A stretch of DNA of 64,000 nt from Oscillatoriales cyanobacterium (GCA_004293365.1 RDYN01000027.1:1-64000), one strand, 5' to 3'; counted from the first letter of the stretch, positions 2,070 through 10,314 are shown. Numbers and translations: made by a program. The notes: generated by a model not told the origin, from the sequence alone.

Positions 2070-2142
2070 GCTGGTGTAACTCAGTTGGTAGAGTAGCTGA
2101 TTTGTAATCAGCCTGTCGCAAGTTCGAGTCTTGTCACCAGCT
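2070..2142 (+). tRNA. tRNA-Thr (anticodon UGU)
   Basis: A 73-nt cloverleaf can be folded by eye. The acceptor stem is GCTGGTG/CACCAGC with discriminator T. The D arm is ACTC...GAGT. The anticodon stem is GCTGA/TCAGC around loop TTTGTAA, giving anticodon TGT. The T arm is GCAAG-TTCGAGT-CTTGT. CCA is not encoded. The 3' half from 2094 is repeated exactly at 8309-8360, marking this gene as the integration target of the adjacent element. The gene remains complete because the element restores its 3' end. Confidence 0.93.
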
Positions 2143-2145
2143 TTA
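2094..2145 (+). repeat. attL: 52-bp direct repeat within tRNA-Thr 3' half
   Basis: TAGCTGATTTGTAATC to CACCAGCTTTA is identical, base for base, to 8309-8360. It covers the anticodon arm, T arm and acceptor 3' strand. Divergence begins immediately outside on both sides (G2093 versus C8308; T2146 versus C8361), which fixes the repeat length at 52 bp. Confidence 0.9.
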
Positions 2146-2766
2146 TAGCTCAAACCAAGGTTAGATAAGACTTCTAGCCTTCTGCTCATTTCTAGGTATG
2201 AAGTGGGTCTAGAACTACAATACCTGTTTCATACCCACTAAGCTCTTAAAGCTAGGCTTTATAAGTAAATCAAAATTATTTAGATAGAAAGATAATTACT
2301 GCCTAATAATTCTACTTGCCTAGACGGTAAGCTGTCACATCTCACTCTATCCCTCTTAAATCGAGTTTTAAGGCTCCTCTACACAATAAATGTAGATTCA
2401 TACCGATACGTGCCTTATCGCTCCATGTAGCTCAATCTAGAGGCATATAATATGATTTGTTTTAGTTATAGAACATTGAGTTTGCATTGAAATAAATTAT
2501 GTAATAGAAGCACATAGGGAAAGCAGGTTACTCTAACCTCAACCATTTAGCTATCATCTCTACTCTGTTCCTATAGATTCTCATATTTCTTATATACTTT
2601 CCTATATCACTTATTACATATAATGTCCTATCTTATTACATATAATGTCCTATCTTAGTAGTGTATAAAAAGTGCGAAGTAAAGCTAAGCTAGATAGGAT
2701 TTAAAACGGGTTGACTCTGTAGTAGGGTAAGGGTTCATTAGTAGATCGTGGCTTTGGCTCGACTAC
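2146..2766. other. Noncoding left end of the integrated element
   Basis: There is no convincing gene in this 620-bp stretch. Near the attachment site lie AGGTATGA (2194-2201) and TCATACCC (2229-2236), which match repeated motifs at the other end of the element (8208-8241). A 22-bp unit, TTATTACATATAATGTCCTATC, is directly repeated without a gap at 2611-2632 and 2633-2654. The region is A+T rich and could hold recombinase arm sites or the 3' untranslated end of the leftward genes. Confidence 0.5.
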
Positions 2767-3492
2767 TTACACATCAGGAGTAGAAGGAGTTACCTGTATA
2801 GATTCAATCGGTGGTGTTGCTGCTGCGGATAGTGTAAACTGGCTAACGTTGTAGTGTTTCTTTAAGTGTACCGAGAAGTCCTCAGAAAGACCTGAAATGT
2901 ATTCCTTAAAGATAACCACCACACGGTCTAGATCAATCTCCATTGTTTTGGAATATCCGCCCAACTCTACACACTTATAATATCGCCCTTCCTGATAGGC
3001 GATAAATAAAAACAACAACTTGACTAGCGCCGGGGTATATATCCCTGTATCGGATAGTATTGTAACGTGTTGTGAAAATGCTTCTGAGGTTAACCATTTA
3101 GAAAAGATTTCCTCTAAATCATCCCCCTCTATTGGTGAAAAATTTGAGTTTACGGGCTTATAGGTTAGAGCCTTAGCCTGAGTAAATAACGGTTTAGTGT
3201 CCCAGATTATTTTTCCATCTATTAAAAGTGTGAAAAATGCTACATATTGAGTCAATTCTAGTCCGTTAGTGTAGCGAAAAACTAACTGCTGCCCGCGTTC
3301 ACTTGCGAGTAGAGTAACACTTATCACCTCTACTTTTGCATTTTTGGCGGTTTTGTAGGTCTTGACTAGCTGAGCTTTCCCATGCTTATCTGTCTTTATC
3401 TTTGTAGTACAAGTCGCGGGGATAAGCTCTAACTGAGTTGTCTCAACTGACTCTGAGACGAAAGATAGGTTTTGACGGAATTTGAGAGCCAT
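2767..3492 (-). CDS. Element-encoded protein of unknown function, paralogue of the next gene
   Basis: I do not recognise this 241-residue protein. The start was placed at the ATG at 3490-3492 (MALKFRQNLS) because AAAGGA lies 7 bases upstream; an upstream extension to 3609 exists but has no such site. Its C-terminal two thirds are related to the C-terminal third of the neighbouring 478-residue protein. Shared blocks are RGQxLxF, the KWL/QWL segment, ALVKLLxLxxxY and the final YxxxISGL. It lacks the zinc-cluster N-terminus of the partner. The tail is rich in Pro, Ser and Thr (TPSTPDV). The two genes are about 210 bp apart, probably in one leftward unit. A stand-alone copy of the shared domain beside a longer version suggests a two-component system or duplicated cargo. 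Confidence 0.7.
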   Translation of the reverse strand: MALKFRQNLSFVSESVETTQLELIPATCTTKIKTDKHGKAQLVKTYKTAKNAKVEVISVTLLASERGQQLVFRYTNGLELTQYVAFFTLLIDGKIIWDTKPLFTQAKALTYKPVNSNFSPIEGDDLEEIFSKWLTSEAFSQHVTILSDTGIYTPALVKLLFLFIAYQEGRYYKCVELGGYSKTMEIDLDRVVVIFKEYISGLSEDFSVHLKKHYNVSQFTLSAAATPPIESIQVTPSTPDV

Positions 3493-3701
3493 GATTTTTT
3501 CCTTTTTTTGTGAGTGTTTGCATTTTTCTACTAAGTGACTGTTAGTTAAGGTATGAGTATTACTCACGTTAACAGTTGAGTAGAAAGAGCTAGAGTAGTT
3601 ACCATACATACTCTAACTGTTTCTCTTTAGTTTTCTGTCATTACATCGACTGTTGGAGTAGAAGGTGAAGCAGTTGGTTTGACTACTTATAAAGCAAATG
3701 T

Positions 3702-5138
3702 TTAGTCTACTTCGTAGATTCGCTTCATATGGGGGGTATCCTGTACCAGACCGGATATTAGGTTCTTATAGGTTTCTGCTACCTTGTCTAGGAATACTTG
3801 CATATTACTTCCTAGTAATTCGGTTTCTGTAGATATTTCTGTCCGTTCTGCTGTATAAGACATATACAGTAGCAGTAGCTTTACTAATGCAGAATGATAG
3901 AGTCTTTTACGGCAGTAAAGACTTAGCTCTTGGGCAAATCCTTGACTCACTAGCCATTGTAAAAAAAATTGCTCTAGAGACGTACTCAGTATAGGGTCGT
4001 ACTCATACCAGGTGGGAATTGCAATCTGTCTAGACAACTTATTAAAACCCGATAAAGGTTTCCACTGAATTAATCCATCATTCATTTGAGAAAAAGTTGC
4101 AAATATCACGCTATTTTGCTTAAAGATTAAATGTTGTCCTCTAACATCTGTTTGCCAGATTATACTCAAATTTTGGGGAGATTTTCCCTTAATTTTCAAA
4201 TAATTTATTTTTCCTTTTTTACTCTTTCTACGCTTGCCAGGGATGTACTCAAACTCGATTTCTTTCCAAAATGAGGGAGATGACGAAAAATATAATCCCT
4301 GAGAAAGGAACAAACCACCCCAGGCAGCACCCGTCTTAGGTTGATTTATTATACGTTGATGTTCCTTTTCTAGCTTAGTACCTATGTCGCCTAGGGTTTT
4401 AGCAAAATTTAAAATCTCATGTTTTCCTATGGGTTCACTTGGGAACTCATCAAATGTTAAACTTTGAGAAACATAAAGTATTAACTCAATAACTTTAGAG
4501 CAAACTTCCTGAGAATCGTTATTAACAGAGACGTTTTTATTTAACAAATAAAACACATAGTAAAGGATATCCTCTAAAATGTATTCACTAGCAGGAACGC
4601 ATAAGTAATCAACTATATATGTTAAAACTCGACCCTGTATTTTTGATAATTCATTATGGTTTTTAATGAAAGATAAGGCAATCTCTTCAATAAGTTTTCT
4701 TTCCTCTTTGAACCAACTTAACCATGACTGAATATCAATTTTATATCTATCCACTAAGCTTAAACCTTGAAGCCTACAATCTTTAAGCGCATTACTATCT
4801 GAGATTGTTTGATTAGGATTATTAATTATAGCTTGGTCAAGGATGTCTTTAAATTTGGTCTGAAATTTTTCTAAGCTTTGTTCTCTACTTTGTGAATCAT
4901 TACTGGATTCACTGGGATGGGTATTGCCCTTTCTTTCCAACTTACAGTTCTTGCCTGTATCTTTGAAGTGAGAAAAGTGAGGAACTATTTTTCCCTCTAT
5001 ACATGGCTTAAAAAAAACACGTTCCCTACATTCAGGATGAGGACAAAGTATACTTAACTCTTCATCCGATAAATAGTTTAATCTCTCATCATCAGGGGTG
5101 ATTGTTTCAGCTAAGAACATAGATATAGCCGATTCCAT
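3702..5138 (-). CDS. CoiA-like zinc-cluster protein with domain shared with neighbour
   Basis: This is a 478-residue protein of unknown function. Residues 32-65 form a likely zinc site, C32-P-H-P-E-C37 then H54-F-S-H57 and C65. This C-x4-C / HFxH / C arrangement resembles the N-terminal domain of competence protein CoiA and related nuclease-associated proteins. Residues about 70-260 are helical and charged. Residues about 330-478 match the neighbouring 241-residue protein (RGQHLIF, QWLVSQGF, ALVKLLLLYMSY, LISGL). Reading on in frame after the TAA stop gives further stops and then a Pro/Ser/Thr-rich tail like that of the paralogue (PTASPSTPTVDV), so a former C-terminal tail seems to have been cut off. 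A nuclease or DNA-processing role is only a guess; no catalytic motif is evident. Confidence 0.7.
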   Translation of the reverse strand: MESAISMFLAETITPDDERLNYLSDEELSILCPHPECRERVFFKPCIEGKIVPHFSHFKDTGKNCKLERKGNTHPSESSNDSQSREQSLEKFQTKFKDILDQAIINNPNQTISDSNALKDCRLQGLSLVDRYKIDIQSWLSWFKEERKLIEEIALSFIKNHNELSKIQGRVLTYIVDYLCVPASEYILEDILYYVFYLLNKNVSVNNDSQEVCSKVIELILYVSQSLTFDEFPSEPIGKHEILNFAKTLGDIGTKLEKEHQRIINQPKTGAAWGGLFLSQGLYFSSSPSFWKEIEFEYIPGKRRKSKKGKINYLKIKGKSPQNLSIIWQTDVRGQHLIFKQNSVIFATFSQMNDGLIQWKPLSGFNKLSRQIAIPTWYEYDPILSTSLEQFFLQWLVSQGFAQELSLYCRKRLYHSALVKLLLLYMSYTAERTEISTETELLGSNMQVFLDKVAETYKNLISGLVQDTPHMKRIYEVD

Positions 5139-5560
5139 AAAACTTAACCCCCTTGTTTTTAATAATTATCATTAAGTAAATAGAACCTTATAATAATTTT
5201 AGTAATTATTTAAAAGTTATCCCAGCATTACCTATGAATTTAACAGTAGTCCTCTGCATATACTGTGACTTAAATCACCTACTGATAAATAGCTAAAACT
5301 ATTGCTATAGAATTTTAATGTTTCAGACAATTAGGTGATTTTATCCTGAGAAGTGTAACTATGTAACTATGTAACTGTAACTCAACTAACTTTAACACCA
5401 TTGGATATTTATTTTCTCCGGGTCTATCAATTAACTAGATTGACCGATCGCTCTAAAGGATTAGTTAAAATTTTACAGTTACACGGTTACACAGTTACAA
5501 AATAGCTGAACCCCTTGATATATAAAGGATTCAGCTCGTAACTCAACCGTAATTACTCAG
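5139..5560. other. Iteron-like noncoding block, candidate replication origin
   Basis: No gene is visible. GTAACT occurs four times in direct orientation within 5354-5380 (GTGTAACT, ATGTAACT, ATGTAACT, GTAACT). The same motif occurs three times in opposite orientation within 5475-5497 (CAGTTACACGGTTACACAGT). The intervening 100 bases hold a CGATCG site. The block lies directly beside the 3' end of the VapE-type gene, a common place for the origin used by a replication protein of a satellite or plasmid. Function is inferred from position and pattern only. Confidence 0.45.
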
Positions 5561-6694
5561 TTACCTAGTTACAGCCACAGGTACTTGCCAGTATTTACCG
5601 GACTTACCGTTGACTCTACTAGCTGTAGTGGGTTTTTCTAAGTCTAAACCTCTCAGAATATCAATAATCCTTTCTTCATCTTTTCTATTCCAAGACTTAC
5701 GTTCTTTTCCTATAGCCTCAGTTAAGACATCGCCCAAAACAAAAGGCTCTTGTCGTTTCTCTACCCAATCAGCTACTATATCTTGCCACATATCATTTGC
5801 TTGATATTTTTCATTTACAGCATTAAGCATTTCTTGCTCAGTTTCATTTAAGTAGATAGGATAATTATCTTTGTAGGCTTTAACAGCACTAGCCCAAATC
5901 AAATCTCTATTTTCTTTTACCCATTCAATATCAATTTTCTCGTTTACATCTACGCACCAAAATCTTCTATTACCTGTAGCATCAACTAAAAACTTATCTT
6001 TATTCGTTGTACCTACTATAATAAACTGTCGATGGAGTGTAATCGGTCTGCTATCATAGGGTTTACGAAGAGTGTCGCTTTGCTGAGTAATAAAAGCTTT
6101 TAACTTACCCATCTTACTCGCAGTCAGAGTCTCTTCACACTCTCCTAGCTCAATAATCCACTTACTATGACAAATCATTAGCTCATCTTTATTATAAGCT
6201 TGCAAAGACATAGAGGTAAATAAATCTTCTCCCGCTAATTCCCTGAAGAAAGAAGTCTTATAAAAGCCTTGAGAACCTTTAAGTAAAAGTACAGTATCAA
6301 ATTTAGTACCAGGCTTTAACACTCTCGCTACTGCACCTACTAAAGTCTTAGGTAAAAATAATCCTTCTAAGGAATGAGGATCAATATGTAGGACTTTCTC
6401 ATTAAGCTCTCTAAAAACATCTTTATAGTCTATATCTGGGAACTTAGACTCGCATACATTTAAGTAATCATCTAAAGGAGAGAATACATTTTTACTAGCG
6501 TAGAGGTATGCTAGTTCATGGATGTACTTATCATTCTCTAGGACAGTATTATGCTTGAGAGAAACCTGATACCTAAACTTAGGTAAGTCAAATACTTCTC
6601 CATCCAAGTAAATATCCTTGGTGACTTTGTTAAGGCTTAACTGCTCAGCAAAGTTATTAGCAATAATTCTGTCTGTTTCTTTGTAGTTCGTCAT
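5561..6694 (-). CDS. VapE/VirE-family P-loop ATPase (replication protein of the element)
   Basis: The 377-residue product carries the core of the virulence-associated E (VapE/VirE, Pfam PF05272) superfamily 3-like helicase domain. A Walker A motif, GSQGFYKTS, spans residues 140-148. The Walker B-like WIIELGE spans 179-185, the sensor-type IVGTTNKDKF lies around 226-235, and the arginine-finger block GNRRFW is at 241-246. In phage satellites and some plasmids, such proteins act as replication initiators or helicases, often with a primase; no primase domain is seen here. The start at 6692-6694 (MTNYKETD) was preferred. The reading frame extends upstream to a TTG at 6811 across an 11-base A run (FFFLR), but those residues look non-conserved. 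The iteron-like block lies just downstream. Confidence 0.8.
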   Translation of the reverse strand: MTNYKETDRIIANNFAEQLSLNKVTKDIYLDGEVFDLPKFRYQVSLKHNTVLENDKYIHELAYLYASKNVFSPLDDYLNVCESKFPDIDYKDVFRELNEKVLHIDPHSLEGLFLPKTLVGAVARVLKPGTKFDTVLLLKGSQGFYKTSFFRELAGEDLFTSMSLQAYNKDELMICHSKWIIELGECEETLTASKMGKLKAFITQQSDTLRKPYDSRPITLHRQFIIVGTTNKDKFLVDATGNRRFWCVDVNEKIDIEWVKENRDLIWASAVKAYKDNYPIYLNETEQEMLNAVNEKYQANDMWQDIVADWVEKRQEPFVLGDVLTEAIGKERKSWNRKDEERIIDILRGLDLEKPTTASRVNGKSGKYWQVPVAVTR

Positions 6695-6956
6695 TCTTAA
6701 AAAAAAAAATAGATAAATAATCATATAAACACCACTAAAATGTTCTAACGGAGATTGCCATAGCAAAATCGCTAGAAACGTAGAATCTCTAAGTTCTTGC
6801 TTGTAAGACAAGAAAATAAGAGACTCCTAAATTGTCAAGGTTCAGTGTTTACCTATTACTCATTATAGAGAGTCGTTAATTGAATCGACAGATTAAGCAA
6901 TTTCCAGATTACCGTATCTCATGTTCGGTAAACCGTACCAACGCACATCAATGAAA

Positions 6957-6983
6957 AGGATAGAAGTTTTTCGCCTCTATCCT
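6957..6983 (-). terminator. Hairpin after the integrase gene
   Basis: AGGATAGA (6957-6964) pairs perfectly with TCTATCCT (6976-6983) around an 11-nt loop, 28 bases beyond the integrase stop codon. On the minus strand it is followed by TTTC, a weak U-tract. It probably ends or attenuates integrase transcription. Confidence 0.5.
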
Positions 6984-7010
6984 CTTGATTTTCTTGTTTA
7001 TTTACGAGAC

Positions 7011-8201
7011 TTACAACTCAGGTAAGGTTAAATCCTTCTTAGCTGCTAGGTAATGGTCTAGAATAACTTGAGGACTATTGCCTACCAGTGCTGCTACTGT
7101 AGATGGATCATAACCATCCCGAATTAAGCGAGTAATCAATGAGTGCCGAAGATTATAACAGGGTAGGTATTGGCTAATTTTTCCAGACTGGTACAGTTTG
7201 ATTACTACAGGACGCCATTGCCGATTGAGAAAATTATATTGATTCAGATATCCTCCCTCTACACTAGGAAAGACTAGATTATTTTCATTTTGACGTTTAG
7301 GAATGCGTCTTAAGAGGCTAAGAAGTTGGTCATTGCAAGGGAAAATTCGAGTATTGTAGGTTTTAGTATCCTTTAACTCTCCCTTTGAGTAGGCTTTGCT
7401 AACCACTATCACAGTCCTCCCATTTCTTTCTTTGATATCATTCCAATTGAGAGCTATTGCTTCCTCTGGTCGGAAACCTGTTAAAGCTAGAAACTCTACA
7501 TAACCAGAGTAGTAGGAATGAGAGTAAGCACTAGCAGGTGAACAGAATTCATTACTTGAGAATGACTGAATAATGCTTTTAACTTCTTCAGGCTCAAAGC
7601 ATTCTTTAGAACGTTTGCTTTTTTGTCCTTTAGGCAGTTGCTTTTTGAGATTGTGATAGGGATTATCACTGATTAACTTAGTTTCAACAGACCAGTTGGA
7701 GGCAGCATTGATGTTAGCAATCGCTTTTTTTAGGGTGCTGGAACTGTAATGCTCCAATAATTCCTGCAATAGTAAGTGAGGATTGTCAAGGTCAAGAGCT
7801 TCACTGGAAACTTTAGCTAAGCACCTCTCTACTTCTTTCCAGTCTTTTTTTTGAGTTGTTTTAGCTACTCGCTGTACATGGGCTTGCTTGTAGTGTTCCC
7901 AAACATCTGCTAGATTAAGCTTAGTTACCCGTTGTACAGGTGCTAGTGCTTGTGCGTGTTTAGGGGAATATTTCGCTAGACTCTCATCGAAGCGTTCCAT
8001 TAGGATATCGCTATTGATTTCTTGAGCCTTAGCACTGGCTACCTTGAGAGTAGTATCAGTATCAGCTTTACCCACTGTTATCGCGTAACCCTGACCATTG
8101 AACCGCCAGCGAATACGATAGCTACCTTGGAATCGCTCTACCGAAACCTTACCGTACTTAGCTACTACACCATCTTTGTTGTCATCAGGGGTGATAAACA
8201 T
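7011..8201 (-). CDS. int: Tyrosine recombinase (integrase) of the tRNA-Thr element
   Basis: This 396-residue site-specific recombinase is encoded next to the right attachment repeat. An N-terminal arm-binding-like region (residues about 12-45, GKVSVERFQGSYRIRW) is followed by a SAM-like core-binding region (about 95-185) and the catalytic domain (about 205-390). Catalytic candidates are R244 in TGFRPEEA, K280, R352 in YNLRHS, and the nucleophile Y384 in LDHYLA. Two usual histidines are replaced: the HxLR position is Y349, and the GH position is N375 in LVGNS. Such substitutions occur in some recombinase subgroups, so the enzyme may still be active. It would catalyse integration and excision at the 52-bp repeat. 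No excisionase gene is obvious. Confidence 0.9.
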   Translation of the reverse strand: MFITPDDNKDGVVAKYGKVSVERFQGSYRIRWRFNGQGYAITVGKADTDTTLKVASAKAQEINSDILMERFDESLAKYSPKHAQALAPVQRVTKLNLADVWEHYKQAHVQRVAKTTQKKDWKEVERCLAKVSSEALDLDNPHLLLQELLEHYSSSTLKKAIANINAASNWSVETKLISDNPYHNLKKQLPKGQKSKRSKECFEPEEVKSIIQSFSSNEFCSPASAYSHSYYSGYVEFLALTGFRPEEAIALNWNDIKERNGRTVIVVSKAYSKGELKDTKTYNTRIFPCNDQLLSLLRRIPKRQNENNLVFPSVEGGYLNQYNFLNRQWRPVVIKLYQSGKISQYLPCYNLRHSLITRLIRDGYDPSTVAALVGNSPQVILDHYLAAKKDLTLPEL

Positions 8202-8207
8202 GATTTT

Positions 8208-8241
8208 GGGTATGGGTAAATTTCATACCCGCCTCATACCC
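8208..8241. promoter_or_regulatory. Clustered CATACCC motifs upstream of the integrase
   Basis: GGGTATGG (8208-8215), TCATACCC (8223-8230) and TCATACCC (8234-8241) lie just upstream of the integrase start and about 70 bases from attR. Matching motifs occur about 50-90 bases inside attL (2194-2201, 2229-2236). The symmetric placement suggests arm-type recombinase sites or an operator controlling the integrase. Confidence 0.45.
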
Positions 8242-8308
8242 AGTTTCTTTGACAGAGGGTATCTAGTAGAGCTTCAAGCCGTTGGTTTACCTCAAAAGTA
8301 GTTAAAGC

Positions 8309-8360
8309 TAGCTGATTTGTAATCAGCCTGTCGCAAGTTCGAGTCTTGTCACCAGCTTTA
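8309..8360 (+). repeat. attR: 52-bp tRNA-Thr fragment
   Basis: An exact copy of 2094-2145. It lacks the 5' acceptor strand and D arm, so it cannot form a tRNA; it is the displaced original 3' end of the target gene. Confidence 0.9.
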
Positions 8361-8375
8361 CAAGCATAATCACGT

Positions 8376-8435
8376 GTTCGTAGTCAGGACTTTAGTCCTC
8401 TTGTTTTTAAGAGGACTGAAGTCCTCACTACGAAC
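8376..8435. repeat. GGACTTTAGTCC-type hairpin repeat
   Basis: GTTCGTAGTCAGGACTTTAG and its inverted partner GACTGAAGTCCTCACTACGAAC form a long hairpin. It overlaps the last codons of the aminopeptidase gene and may terminate its transcription. It belongs to a family seen many times in the window. Confidence 0.8.
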
Positions 8436-10314
8436 CGAGATTACTTAATGCGGCGCAGGCTTTTTTCAACCATTCAATTGTTGCTGGATCAAGTACGGGT
8501 GAGAGTTTCTCGACTACGGAGGCGTGATAGTTGTTCAACCATTGTAGTTGAGTTGTTGAGAGCCGATCGACATTTATCAATTTCCGCTCAAACGGAATAT
8601 AAGTCAGCGGTTCAAATCCGTACCAAGCCCTACCGTTTTTAGACAGCATTTCCCTGACAACATAGAGATTTTCGAGGCGAATTCCGCCCCATCCCGCTTC
8701 GTAATATCCCGGTTCGATACTCGTTACCATTCCCGGTTCCAGGGGATATTGCACAAATTTGCTGATACCGTTGGGGCCTTCGTGACCGGCTAAAAATGCG
8801 CCGACTCCGTGGCCTGTTCCGTGTCCGTAGTCTAGCTGTTGTTGCCATAATACCGCACGGGCGATCGCATCTAACTGCGATCCGGTTGTACCTTTCGGGA
8901 ATTGCTGCACCGCACAGTTGATGTGTGCTATCAAAACTGTTGTGTAGTGTTCGATTTGCTGCGTTGTCGGTTCCCCGACAATCATGGTTCTGGTGTCGTC
9001 GGTTGTTCCCGCTAGATACTGTGCGCCTGAGTCTAGCAGCAGCAATTCTCCGGGTTTTAGCGTGATTTCGGGGCTGGGAGTGCCGTAATGTACGATCGAG
9101 CTATTGGCTCCCGCACCGGCGATCGTTCTAAACGTTAAAATATGAAAATCAGTTTCTTGCTGATAAAAACTTTCGATGCTTTCTTTAACATCAAACTCAG
9201 TCAATACATTACCATTTTCTAGCTGTTCTGTCAACCACTTTAAAGTTAGAGTTTTAGCTCGACTTGCCTTAAAATTAGCAGATTGCATCTGCTCGATTTC
9301 CACAGGATTTTTCCGAGCTTTCATCCCTTCTACCGGATTCGGCTCGAAAACTATTTTTATCTTATTTTCACTAGCTTTTTGCTGGTTTAACAGTAACTGA
9401 TACGTACCTGCTGTGCTGTGTTTCGCATCTAAAAGTACCCGAACTTGTTTCGGCAAATTCAAGCAAGCTTCTAAAGTTGACGGATAGTGAGCGTAGGGAA
9501 GCAAAGTTACAGCCGCCGCCAAATCTTGCTCGATTTCCGGTGAAACTCGTTCGAGATTGGTAAACAAAAATGCTGCATCTGCGGTGACAATCGCGTAGGA
9601 TATGAAAATGGGAATGTGGGGAATATCCGAGCCTCGGAGATTGAACAGCCACGCTATTTGATTGAGGTTGGTAATTGGGAGCAAATCGATTTTGGCTTTC
9701 TGCATCGCTTCCCTGACTCGGACTAATTTTTCGGCGCAGGTTTCTCCGGTCAGAGATGCTGGTAAGCTAAATATAGGAGATTCGTCAATCGCGGGTAAAG
9801 TCTCTACTTTTTGTCGAACCTTGTCTGCTAAATTCTCCGATATCGGTACGAGTTCAATCCCCGCAGCAGCAAATCTTTTTACCCAATTTTGATATTGCTC
9901 AGTCGCTACGGTAAACGGATCAAAACCGAATCTAATTTTAGTTGATTTTTGGGCAGAATCTGCCGCCAGTTTTTCTAAAGTTTCAATTAAGCTTAAATTT
10001 CCTTCTAAGCCGAGTTTCGATATTTGAATCAATCCAGCATCGACTTGCAATTCTGCTTGTTCGTAATAGCGGGAATCCACAAACAACCAAGCCGAATTTT
10101 TGCCAACTAACAAATCGCCCGCGGAACCCGTAAAACCTGAAATCCAAGCTCGTCGCTGCTTGGCTGCTGGAAGTGATAAATTTAAGTGTTCGTCAACCGC
10201 TGGAATGAAATAGCAATCTAAGTCATAGTTTGCCATCAAAGCGCGCAATTCAGAAAGTTTTTCTGCGGAGGTATTTTGGATATTTGTATTTACTTTAAAA
10301 TTAGTTGCAACCAT
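8428..10314 (-). CDS. pepP: Xaa-Pro aminopeptidase (M24B), long form
   Basis: The 628-residue product matches the three-domain aminopeptidase P family, which removes an N-terminal residue preceding proline using two metal ions. Two creatinase-like N-terminal domains (about 15-165 and 185-330) precede the pita-bread catalytic domain (about 340-570). Metal ligands are visible as D428 (LLLDSG), D439 (GTTDDTRT), H502 (GTGHGVG), E534 (SIEPGYY) and E548 (GIRLENL). A further C-terminal stretch of about 60 residues is typical of the long, roughly 600-residue form. The start is supported by AGGAG 8 bases upstream. It lies 18 bases behind the aminotransferase gene and is probably co-transcribed with it. 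It should be cytosolic, as no signal peptide is seen. Confidence 0.92.
   Translation of the reverse strand: MVATNFKVNTNIQNTSAEKLSELRALMANYDLDCYFIPAVDEHLNLSLPAAKQRRAWISGFTGSAGDLLVGKNSAWLFVDSRYYEQAELQVDAGLIQISKLGLEGNLSLIETLEKLAADSAQKSTKIRFGFDPFTVATEQYQNWVKRFAAAGIELVPISENLADKVRQKVETLPAIDESPIFSLPASLTGETCAEKLVRVREAMQKAKIDLLPITNLNQIAWLFNLRGSDIPHIPIFISYAIVTADAAFLFTNLERVSPEIEQDLAAAVTLLPYAHYPSTLEACLNLPKQVRVLLDAKHSTAGTYQLLLNQQKASENKIKIVFEPNPVEGMKARKNPVEIEQMQSANFKASRAKTLTLKWLTEQLENGNVLTEFDVKESIESFYQQETDFHILTFRTIAGAGANSSIVHYGTPSPEITLKPGELLLLDSGAQYLAGTTDDTRTMIVGEPTTQQIEHYTTVLIAHINCAVQQFPKGTTGSQLDAIARAVLWQQQLDYGHGTGHGVGAFLAGHEGPNGISKFVQYPLEPGMVTSIEPGYYEAGWGGIRLENLYVVREMLSKNGRAWYGFEPLTYIPFERKLINVDRLSTTQLQWLNNYHASVVEKLSPVLDPATIEWLKKACAALSNLGS

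What the first reader, a model, noticed from the sequence alone, without database searches (positions are those of the whole stretch)
2094..8360. Compact tRNA-Thr-integrated element with a VapE-type ATPase and unknown cargo
A 52-bp perfect repeat of the tRNA-Thr 3' half brackets a 6.2-kb block containing a tyrosine recombinase, a VapE/VirE-like ATPase, an iteron-like block and two related proteins of unknown function. Integrase plus VapE-type replication protein in a small tRNA-borne element is the plan of phage satellites (for example SaPI/PICI) and integrated plasmids. I know of few such elements described in filamentous cyanobacteria. The absence of structural and conjugation genes suggests dependence on a helper phage or plasmid. 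The boundaries are read from the sequence; the satellite nature is inference.
Basis: partly seen in the sequence, partly recalled or inferred. Interest (0 to 1): 0.9.

Follow-up and report, generated by a model that had tools for sequence, protein, structure and literature searches.

The report
Mini tRNA-integrated replicon in Microcoleus
A 6.2-kb piece of mobile DNA sits in a threonine-tRNA gene of a filamentous cyanobacterium; it pairs an integrase with a SaPI-style replication starter and its own origin, and it belongs to a cyanobacterial family whose members swap cargo, several of them carrying anti-phage defence genes.

Summary
A perfect 52-bp copy of the tRNA-Thr(TGT) 3' half (2094-2145 / 8309-8360) brackets a 6.2-kb insert. 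Relatives show the empty site. The insert encodes a tyrosine integrase, a 377-aa VapE-type helicase without a primase, an iteron block and two related unknown proteins (B, A). (1) The iterons are very probably the cognate origin. They lie directly downstream of vapE, and in three other tRNA elements with 53-61% identical VapE the same GTTAC motif is clustered at the same place. More distant short VapEs have another motif (TAGTC) there. This is SaPI Rep/ori architecture. (2) At least six more cyanobacterial elements share the tRNA/int/short-VapE/cargo plan, five of them with exact 45-78-bp repeats; three carry restriction or PADLOC-listed defence genes. (3) tRNA-Thr/pepP is a Microcoleus hotspot. 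Two occupants are remnants cut inside the origin that keep a B-like gene. (4) The integrase subfamily also pairs with D5/DUF3987 helicases, so modules are exchanged. No packaging, capsid, regulatory or relaxase gene was found, so 'phage satellite' is plausible but undemonstrated. B and A are probably accessory, perhaps defence; their structure models were too poor to use.

The parts
2070..2142 (+). Intact tRNA-Thr(TGT), the integration target
   Evidence: ARAGORN; Rfam tRNA 68 bits
2094..2145 (+). Attachment repeat 1 (3' part of the tRNA plus TTA)
   Evidence: Exact 52-bp direct repeat
2146..2766 (.). Left-end non-coding segment; begins with a hairpin (AAGGTTAGATAAGACTTCTAGCCTT) seen in several occupied sites and absent from the empty sites; parts are 91-96% identical in other occupied tRNA-Thr sites and at a tRNA-Met island
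2767..3492 (-). Protein A, 241 aa, unknown; related to the C-terminal part of B
   Evidence: 63% identical homologue alone at the same tRNA in G006 (dN 0.29, dS 0.94)
3702..5138 (-). Protein B, 478 aa; weak CoiA_N-like zinc-finger N-terminus (CPHPEC...HFSH...C) plus the A-like C-terminal domain; candidate cargo effector
   Evidence: Pfam CoiA_N E=0.005, below cutoff; homologues down to 8e-7, and weak DruB hits in homologues
5355..5572 (.). Putative replication origin: 10 GTTAC/GTAAC iterons in facing arrays (5355-5381, 5478-5498, 5538-5572) around an AT-rich spacer; terminator-like hairpin at about 5506-5537; the last two copies overlap the vapE 3' end
5561..6694 (-). Short VapE-type initiator helicase, 377 aa, no primase domain
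   Evidence: PF05272 1e-65; profile match to PDB 7pds, E=2.5e-32
7011..8201 (-). Tyrosine recombinase (integrase), 396 aa, with Arm-DNA-bind_2
   Evidence: PF00589 5e-17, PF12167 6e-5
8309..8360 (+). Attachment repeat 2 (right end)
   Evidence: Exact 52-bp direct repeat
8428..10314 (-). Host Xaa-Pro aminopeptidase-like gene (called pepP here) flanking the site; next to tRNA-Thr in empty-site relatives; not part of the element
   Evidence: name from sequence resemblance, not searched

Best explanation
It is a compact, site-specific integrative replicon. The integrase recombines the 52-bp site in tRNA-Thr(TGT), and the duplicated 3' part keeps the tRNA intact. After excision the short VapE protein acts as a self-loading initiator helicase: its C-terminal domain binds the GTTAC iterons directly downstream of its own gene, opens the AT-rich spacer and starts replication of the circle, as SaPI Rep does; priming is left to the host. 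The element encodes no transfer machinery, so it must hitch-hike, most likely in phage particles, otherwise as a plasmid-like circle or by conjugation in trans. B and A are accessory cargo that can outlive the mobility genes; a defence role is the leading guess. Shown: anatomy, att repeat, empty site, Rep/iteron correlation, cargo turnover, remnants. Inferred: excision, replication, iteron binding, transfer route, function of A/B.
For: att repeat, tRNA and empty site. VapE domain and match to PDB 7pds. Iterons right after vapE: GTTAC 10/12/8/6 copies in 320 bp versus 0.3-0.7 expected in the window, L053, L095 and L096 (P 1e-11, 1e-13, 3e-9, 8e-5). Distant short VapEs have TAGTC instead, 5/4/8 copies in L097, L098 and L099 (P 6e-4, 3e-3, 2e-9), and neither motif is enriched in the other group. 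Most long primase-helicase VapE genes show no such cluster. PMC7581432 states that SaPI Rep recognises, through its C-terminal domain, iterons directly downstream of its gene. The same plan with exact repeats occurs at tRNA-Leu, -Asp (two) and -Val (two). Cargo elsewhere: a type I RM system, a type I REase fragment, and BnzB (1.9e-67) with PDC-M09A. Remnants L054 and L058 begin inside the origin. B-like genes without int stay open for about 800 codons; for L056 versus L057 dN is 0.20 and dS 1.20.
Against: No excised circle, reads or copy-number data. No Xis or regulator was found in the window element; the small ribbon-helix-helix gene that five other members have between int and vapE is missing here and in L096. 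The iteron case for L097 and L098 is modest. The motifs were chosen after looking, though GTTAC was then tested on elements other than the one it came from. No primase is encoded. B and A have no confident family, and their AlphaFold models were poor (pLDDT 52 and 48).
Confidence: 0.78

Rival explanations
1. It is a minimal phage satellite: a helper phage triggers excision and replication, and packages the DNA (for example as concatemers) with no satellite-encoded packaging genes, as in PICMI; cargo protects against competing phages. (A narrower claim within the best explanation.)
For: Size, gene economy and defence-type cargo in sister elements match PICMI (int, replication gene, cargo, no capsid or packaging gene). 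SaPI-type Rep/ori. Islands with the same integrase subfamily carry DUF3987 or D5_N/DUF5906 helicases, the domains used to define the PICMI primase.
Against: No AlpA/Stl-type regulator in the window element, no cos/pac or terS, no helper known, no close relative of VapE or B in IMG/VR and no DNA match in 50,697 phage records.
Confidence: 0.45
2. It is an integrative plasmid: a small iteron plasmid with a VapE initiator that acquired an integrase and alternates between circle and chromosome, with no phage involvement. (A narrower claim within the best explanation.)
For: VapE-domain proteins are the evident replication gene on tiny cyanobacterial plasmids (3.1 kb in Microcystis, 6.3 kb in Cyanobacterium aponinum), with short-repeat clusters at the 3' side. 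CopG-like ribbon-helix-helix genes lie between int and vapE in L053, L097 and L098 and RHH-like ones in L095 and L099.
Against: Those plasmid VapEs are longer (about 530-790 aa) and only 29-33% identical, and the short-VapE clade was seen only beside tRNAs. No partition or addiction gene in the window element.
Confidence: 0.35
3. It is a decayed prophage or genomic-island remnant that is no longer mobile.
For: Very few genes; other occupants of the same site are clearly decayed; an RHH gene seen in sister elements is missing.
Against: att repeats identical over 52 bp; int and vapE full length; G025 has 96% (int) and 92% (vapE) identical copies at the same kind of site.
Confidence: 0.12
4. It is an integrative mobilizable element moved by conjugation through an oriT recognised by a helper plasmid or ICE.
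For: No transfer genes, so a cis-acting oriT would suffice; RHH genes of L095 and L099 weakly match the NikA relaxosome family.
Against: No relaxase in the window element and no oriT identified; the NikA-like gene is absent here.
Confidence: 0.08

Closest known systems
SaPI / PICI satellites (replication module: Rep helicase plus downstream iteron origin)
   Same: Integrase, site-specific att repeats, VapE-type AAA+ initiator (profile match to PDB 7pds), iterons directly downstream of the initiator gene
   Different: 6.2 kb; no Stl/Str or AlpA regulator, no primase, no capsid-redirecting or packaging genes, tRNA site in a cyanobacterium, no helper known
PICMI (Vibrionaceae minimalist satellites, PMC10803314)
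   Same: About 6-kb scale, integrase plus replication gene plus unknown or defence cargo, no packaging or capsid genes
   Different: PICMIs sit next to fis and need AlpA and a DUF3987/DUF5906 primase; here tRNA-Thr, no AlpA, VapE family. DUF3987 or D5 helicases do occur in islands with the same integrase subfamily (L100, L104, L106)
Tycheposons (Prochlorococcus and others)
   Same: tRNA-targeted tyrosine-recombinase islands in cyanobacteria, with cargo
   Different: Described as cargo-carrying elements of 4-200 kb (as cited in PMC10872708); the original paper is not in the library, so no gene-level comparison was made
Small cyanobacterial VapE plasmids (for example NZ_AP024567, 3.1 kb; NZ_CP149440, 6.3 kb)
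   Same: VapE-domain protein as evident replication gene, repeats at its 3' side
   Different: Autonomous, no tyrosine integrase annotated, longer VapE at only 29-33% identity

Membership tests
PICI/SaPI | Site-specific integrase with flanking att repeats | tested here: met
PICI/SaPI | Initiator helicase with iteron origin directly downstream | tested here: met
   Sequence level only; binding and replication not tested
PICI/SaPI | Master regulator (Stl/Str or AlpA) controlling excision | tested here: not met
   No HTH gene found in the element; the int-vapE gap holds no ORF of 28 aa or more
PICI/SaPI | Packaging or capsid interference genes (terS, ppi, cpm) or hijacked cos/pac | tested here: not met
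   Genes absent; cos/pac cannot be judged without a helper
PICI/SaPI | Induction and transfer by a helper phage | not testable with these tools
   Needs a culture and phage
PICMI | Integration next to fis | tested here: not met
   Integrated in tRNA-Thr
PICMI | Core AlpA regulator and DUF3987/DUF5906 primase | tested here: not met
   No AlpA; VapE family with only a sub-threshold DUF5906 hit
PICMI | No capsid-remodelling or packaging genes | tested here: met
Tycheposon | tRNA-borne island with tyrosine recombinase | tested here: met
   family definition taken from a secondary source
Tycheposon | Homology of recombinase and modules to described tycheposons | not tested
   Original paper and sequences not held
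Integrative mobilizable element | Relaxase and/or oriT | tested here: inconclusive
   No relaxase in the element; oriT not searchable
Integrative plasmid | Integrase plus plasmid-type initiator and origin | tested here: met
   Architecture only; episomal state not shown

The most novel reading that the evidence does not exclude
A previously undescribed, cyanobacteria-wide family of minimal phage satellites (int + interchangeable initiator helicase with its own downstream iterons + one defence cargo), in which the site-specific integrase, the replicon and the anti-phage cargo are swapped as three independent modules, and in which the B/A proteins are a new anti-phage system that persists at a tRNA hotspot after the element decays.
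Probability: 0.3. Interest if true: 0.78.

Novelty: new variant of a known kind. Interest (0 to 1): 0.6.

Why it matters
Phage satellites and similar hitch-hiking islands are little described in filamentous cyanobacteria; no paper on such an element was found in the library searched. This gives a concrete, testable family with defined att sites and a predicted initiator/origin pair whose specificity appears to switch between clades. The unknown proteins B and A occur where sister elements carry restriction and other defence genes, which makes them good candidates for new defence genes. A 220-bp origin plus a single gene could also become a small replicon tool for cyanobacteria.

Tried and rejected
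AlphaFold models of B and A were too poor to interpret or search. Rfam found only the tRNA and its partial copy; a MIR869 hit far below cutoff was ignored. B and A have no convincing Pfam, PADLOC, NCBIfam or PHROG family; CoiA_N and DruB hits are weak and only suggestive. Triple GTAACnnn arrays elsewhere (G002, G063) are not near int or vapE, and reversed-pattern controls give similar counts, so they are treated as chance repeats. A general rule that all VapE genes have downstream iterons was tested and rejected: most long primase-helicase VapE genes do not. The idea that the occupants lacking int are independent insertions unrelated to the element was weakened because two begin inside its origin. 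The IMG/VR integrase matches are distant (37% or less over partial length) and were not followed.

Full report
What was checked. The exact 52-bp repeat (2094-2145, 8309-8360), the intact tRNA-Thr(TGT) and the four genes are as described. The tRNA keeps its 3' end because the repeat carries it. In the related genome G003 the tRNA is followed directly by the flank that in the window lies beyond the second repeat (90% identity over 3.2 kb), which is the empty site. The window element occurs once in its genome.

A family. A VapE search of relatives and of the class found the same plan elsewhere in cyanobacteria. At tRNA-Leu: L053, 57-bp repeat, 9.4 kb. Repeats were found with a script. G025 (Microcoleus sp. 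MP8IB2.171) has int 96% and vapE 92% identical next to a tRNA-Thr repeat, cut by the contig end (L052). The integrases differ much more (about 25-30% to the window) than clade-1 VapE (53-61%), so the two genes are exchanged. The window's nearest integrases outside G025 (44-56%) include drivers of other tRNA islands of 6-7 kb whose replication genes are DUF3987 or D5_N/DUF5906 helicases (L100, L104, L106).

The origin. Ten GTTAC/GTAAC iterons lie at 5355-5572, starting in the last codons of vapE, in facing arrays with 8-bp period around an AT-rich spacer, with a terminator-like hairpin between arrays. The same motif is clustered immediately after vapE in L053, L095 and L096, and TAGTC takes its place in L097, L098 and L099. 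Neither motif is enriched in the other group. The L097/L098 cases are modest. Most long VapE genes lack such clusters. A VapE profile matches PDB 7pds, 'Similar to D. nodosus vapE'; my recollection is that this is the SaPI5 Rep, which I could not verify here. PMC7581432 says SaPI Rep binds iterons directly downstream of its gene through its C-terminal domain. Hence the initiator/origin reading; binding is inferred.

The cargo. The slot after the origin holds, in sister elements, a complete type I RM system (L097), a type I REase fragment (L096), and a BnzB homologue (E 1.9e-67) with a PDC-M09A-like gene (L099). L053, the next closest VapE after the two Microcoleus copies, carries a B-like protein (21% over the N-terminal half, E 2e-7). 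B itself has a CPHPEC...HFSH...C N-terminus weakly like CoiA_N. Its relatives of about 800-1,870 aa share that N-terminus and have different C-termini. A resembles the C-terminal domain of B. This makes B/A accessory cargo with defence as leading guess; no function was shown.

The hotspot and remnants. The tRNA-Thr/pepP interval is 80-195 bp in seven related genomes examined (L060-L063, L068, L070, L071), 1.4 kb in L067, and 1.2-5.1 kb in L054, L056-L059 and L064-L066. L054 and L058 run from the pepP flank straight into half of the iteron array, then the region upstream of B and a B-like gene; they are deletion remnants. L059 keeps only an A homologue. Most occupied sites start with a hairpin just after the tRNA that is absent from the empty sites, and the window's left-end non-coding DNA is 91-96% identical in G019, G021 and G028 and, in part, at a tRNA-Met island of G001. 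B-like genes of L056 and L057 are under purifying selection (dN 0.20, dS 1.20, the latter near saturation).

How it most likely works and what is unknown. Excision by Int, VapE-driven replication from the iterons, re-integration, and transfer by hitch-hiking. The transfer route is open: satellite, integrative plasmid or trans-mobilised element. Absence from IMG/VR at close identity and absence of DNA matches in phage records are weak negatives, because small elements are easily left out of viral collections.

Verdict. No paper describing it was found in the open-access library, which misses subscription journals.

Noticed in passing
L064, L065, L066 (tRNA-Thr/pepP interval) and L052:3674-4837: A 384-387 aa ORF of unknown family occupies the tRNA-Thr/pepP interval in G020, G008 and G017, and in G025 a 387-aa ORF lies between pepP and the att repeat of the int-VapE element, suggesting tandem insertions at one hotspot. 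That these ORFs are homologous was not tested.
   Followed up: partly
L100 (tRNA-Arg), L104 (tRNA-Gly), L106 (tRNA-Val, int split into two ORFs): 6-7 kb islands with 41-74-bp att repeats, the same integrase subfamily as the window but DUF3987 or D5_N/DUF5906 replication helicases instead of VapE.
   Followed up: partly
L055:6572-12172; L108:8668-10113: B-like genes (1,866 aa next to tRNA-Met; 481 aa next to tRNA-Val) beside tRNAs, supporting B as recurrent island cargo with variable C-termini.
   Followed up: partly
L095, L097, L098, L099, L053, between int and vapE: Small ribbon-helix-helix genes (CopG- or NikA-like, 52-65 aa), possible replication regulators, missing in the window element and in L096.
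   Followed up: partly
L069 (own genome, contig C103) 3845-8534: A second VapE gene (987 aa, long form) near an integrase beside tRNA-Pro in the same genome; no tRNA repeat found in the stretch read.
   Followed up: partly
1-1079: Transposase-like ORFs at the contig start, apparently interrupted (stop at about 580).
   Followed up: no
1528-1627 and 1775-1950: A 20-bp tandem array (TTCGATCGCCCGATTGTCGG) and a perfect 85-bp duplication with palindromes just upstream of the tRNA; similar 85-bp units occur in related genomes.
   Followed up: no
8376-8435: A 27-bp near-perfect inverted repeat next to the right att site; similar sequences recur several times around the empty site of G003 (L060), so it is probably a dispersed palindrome.
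   Followed up: no
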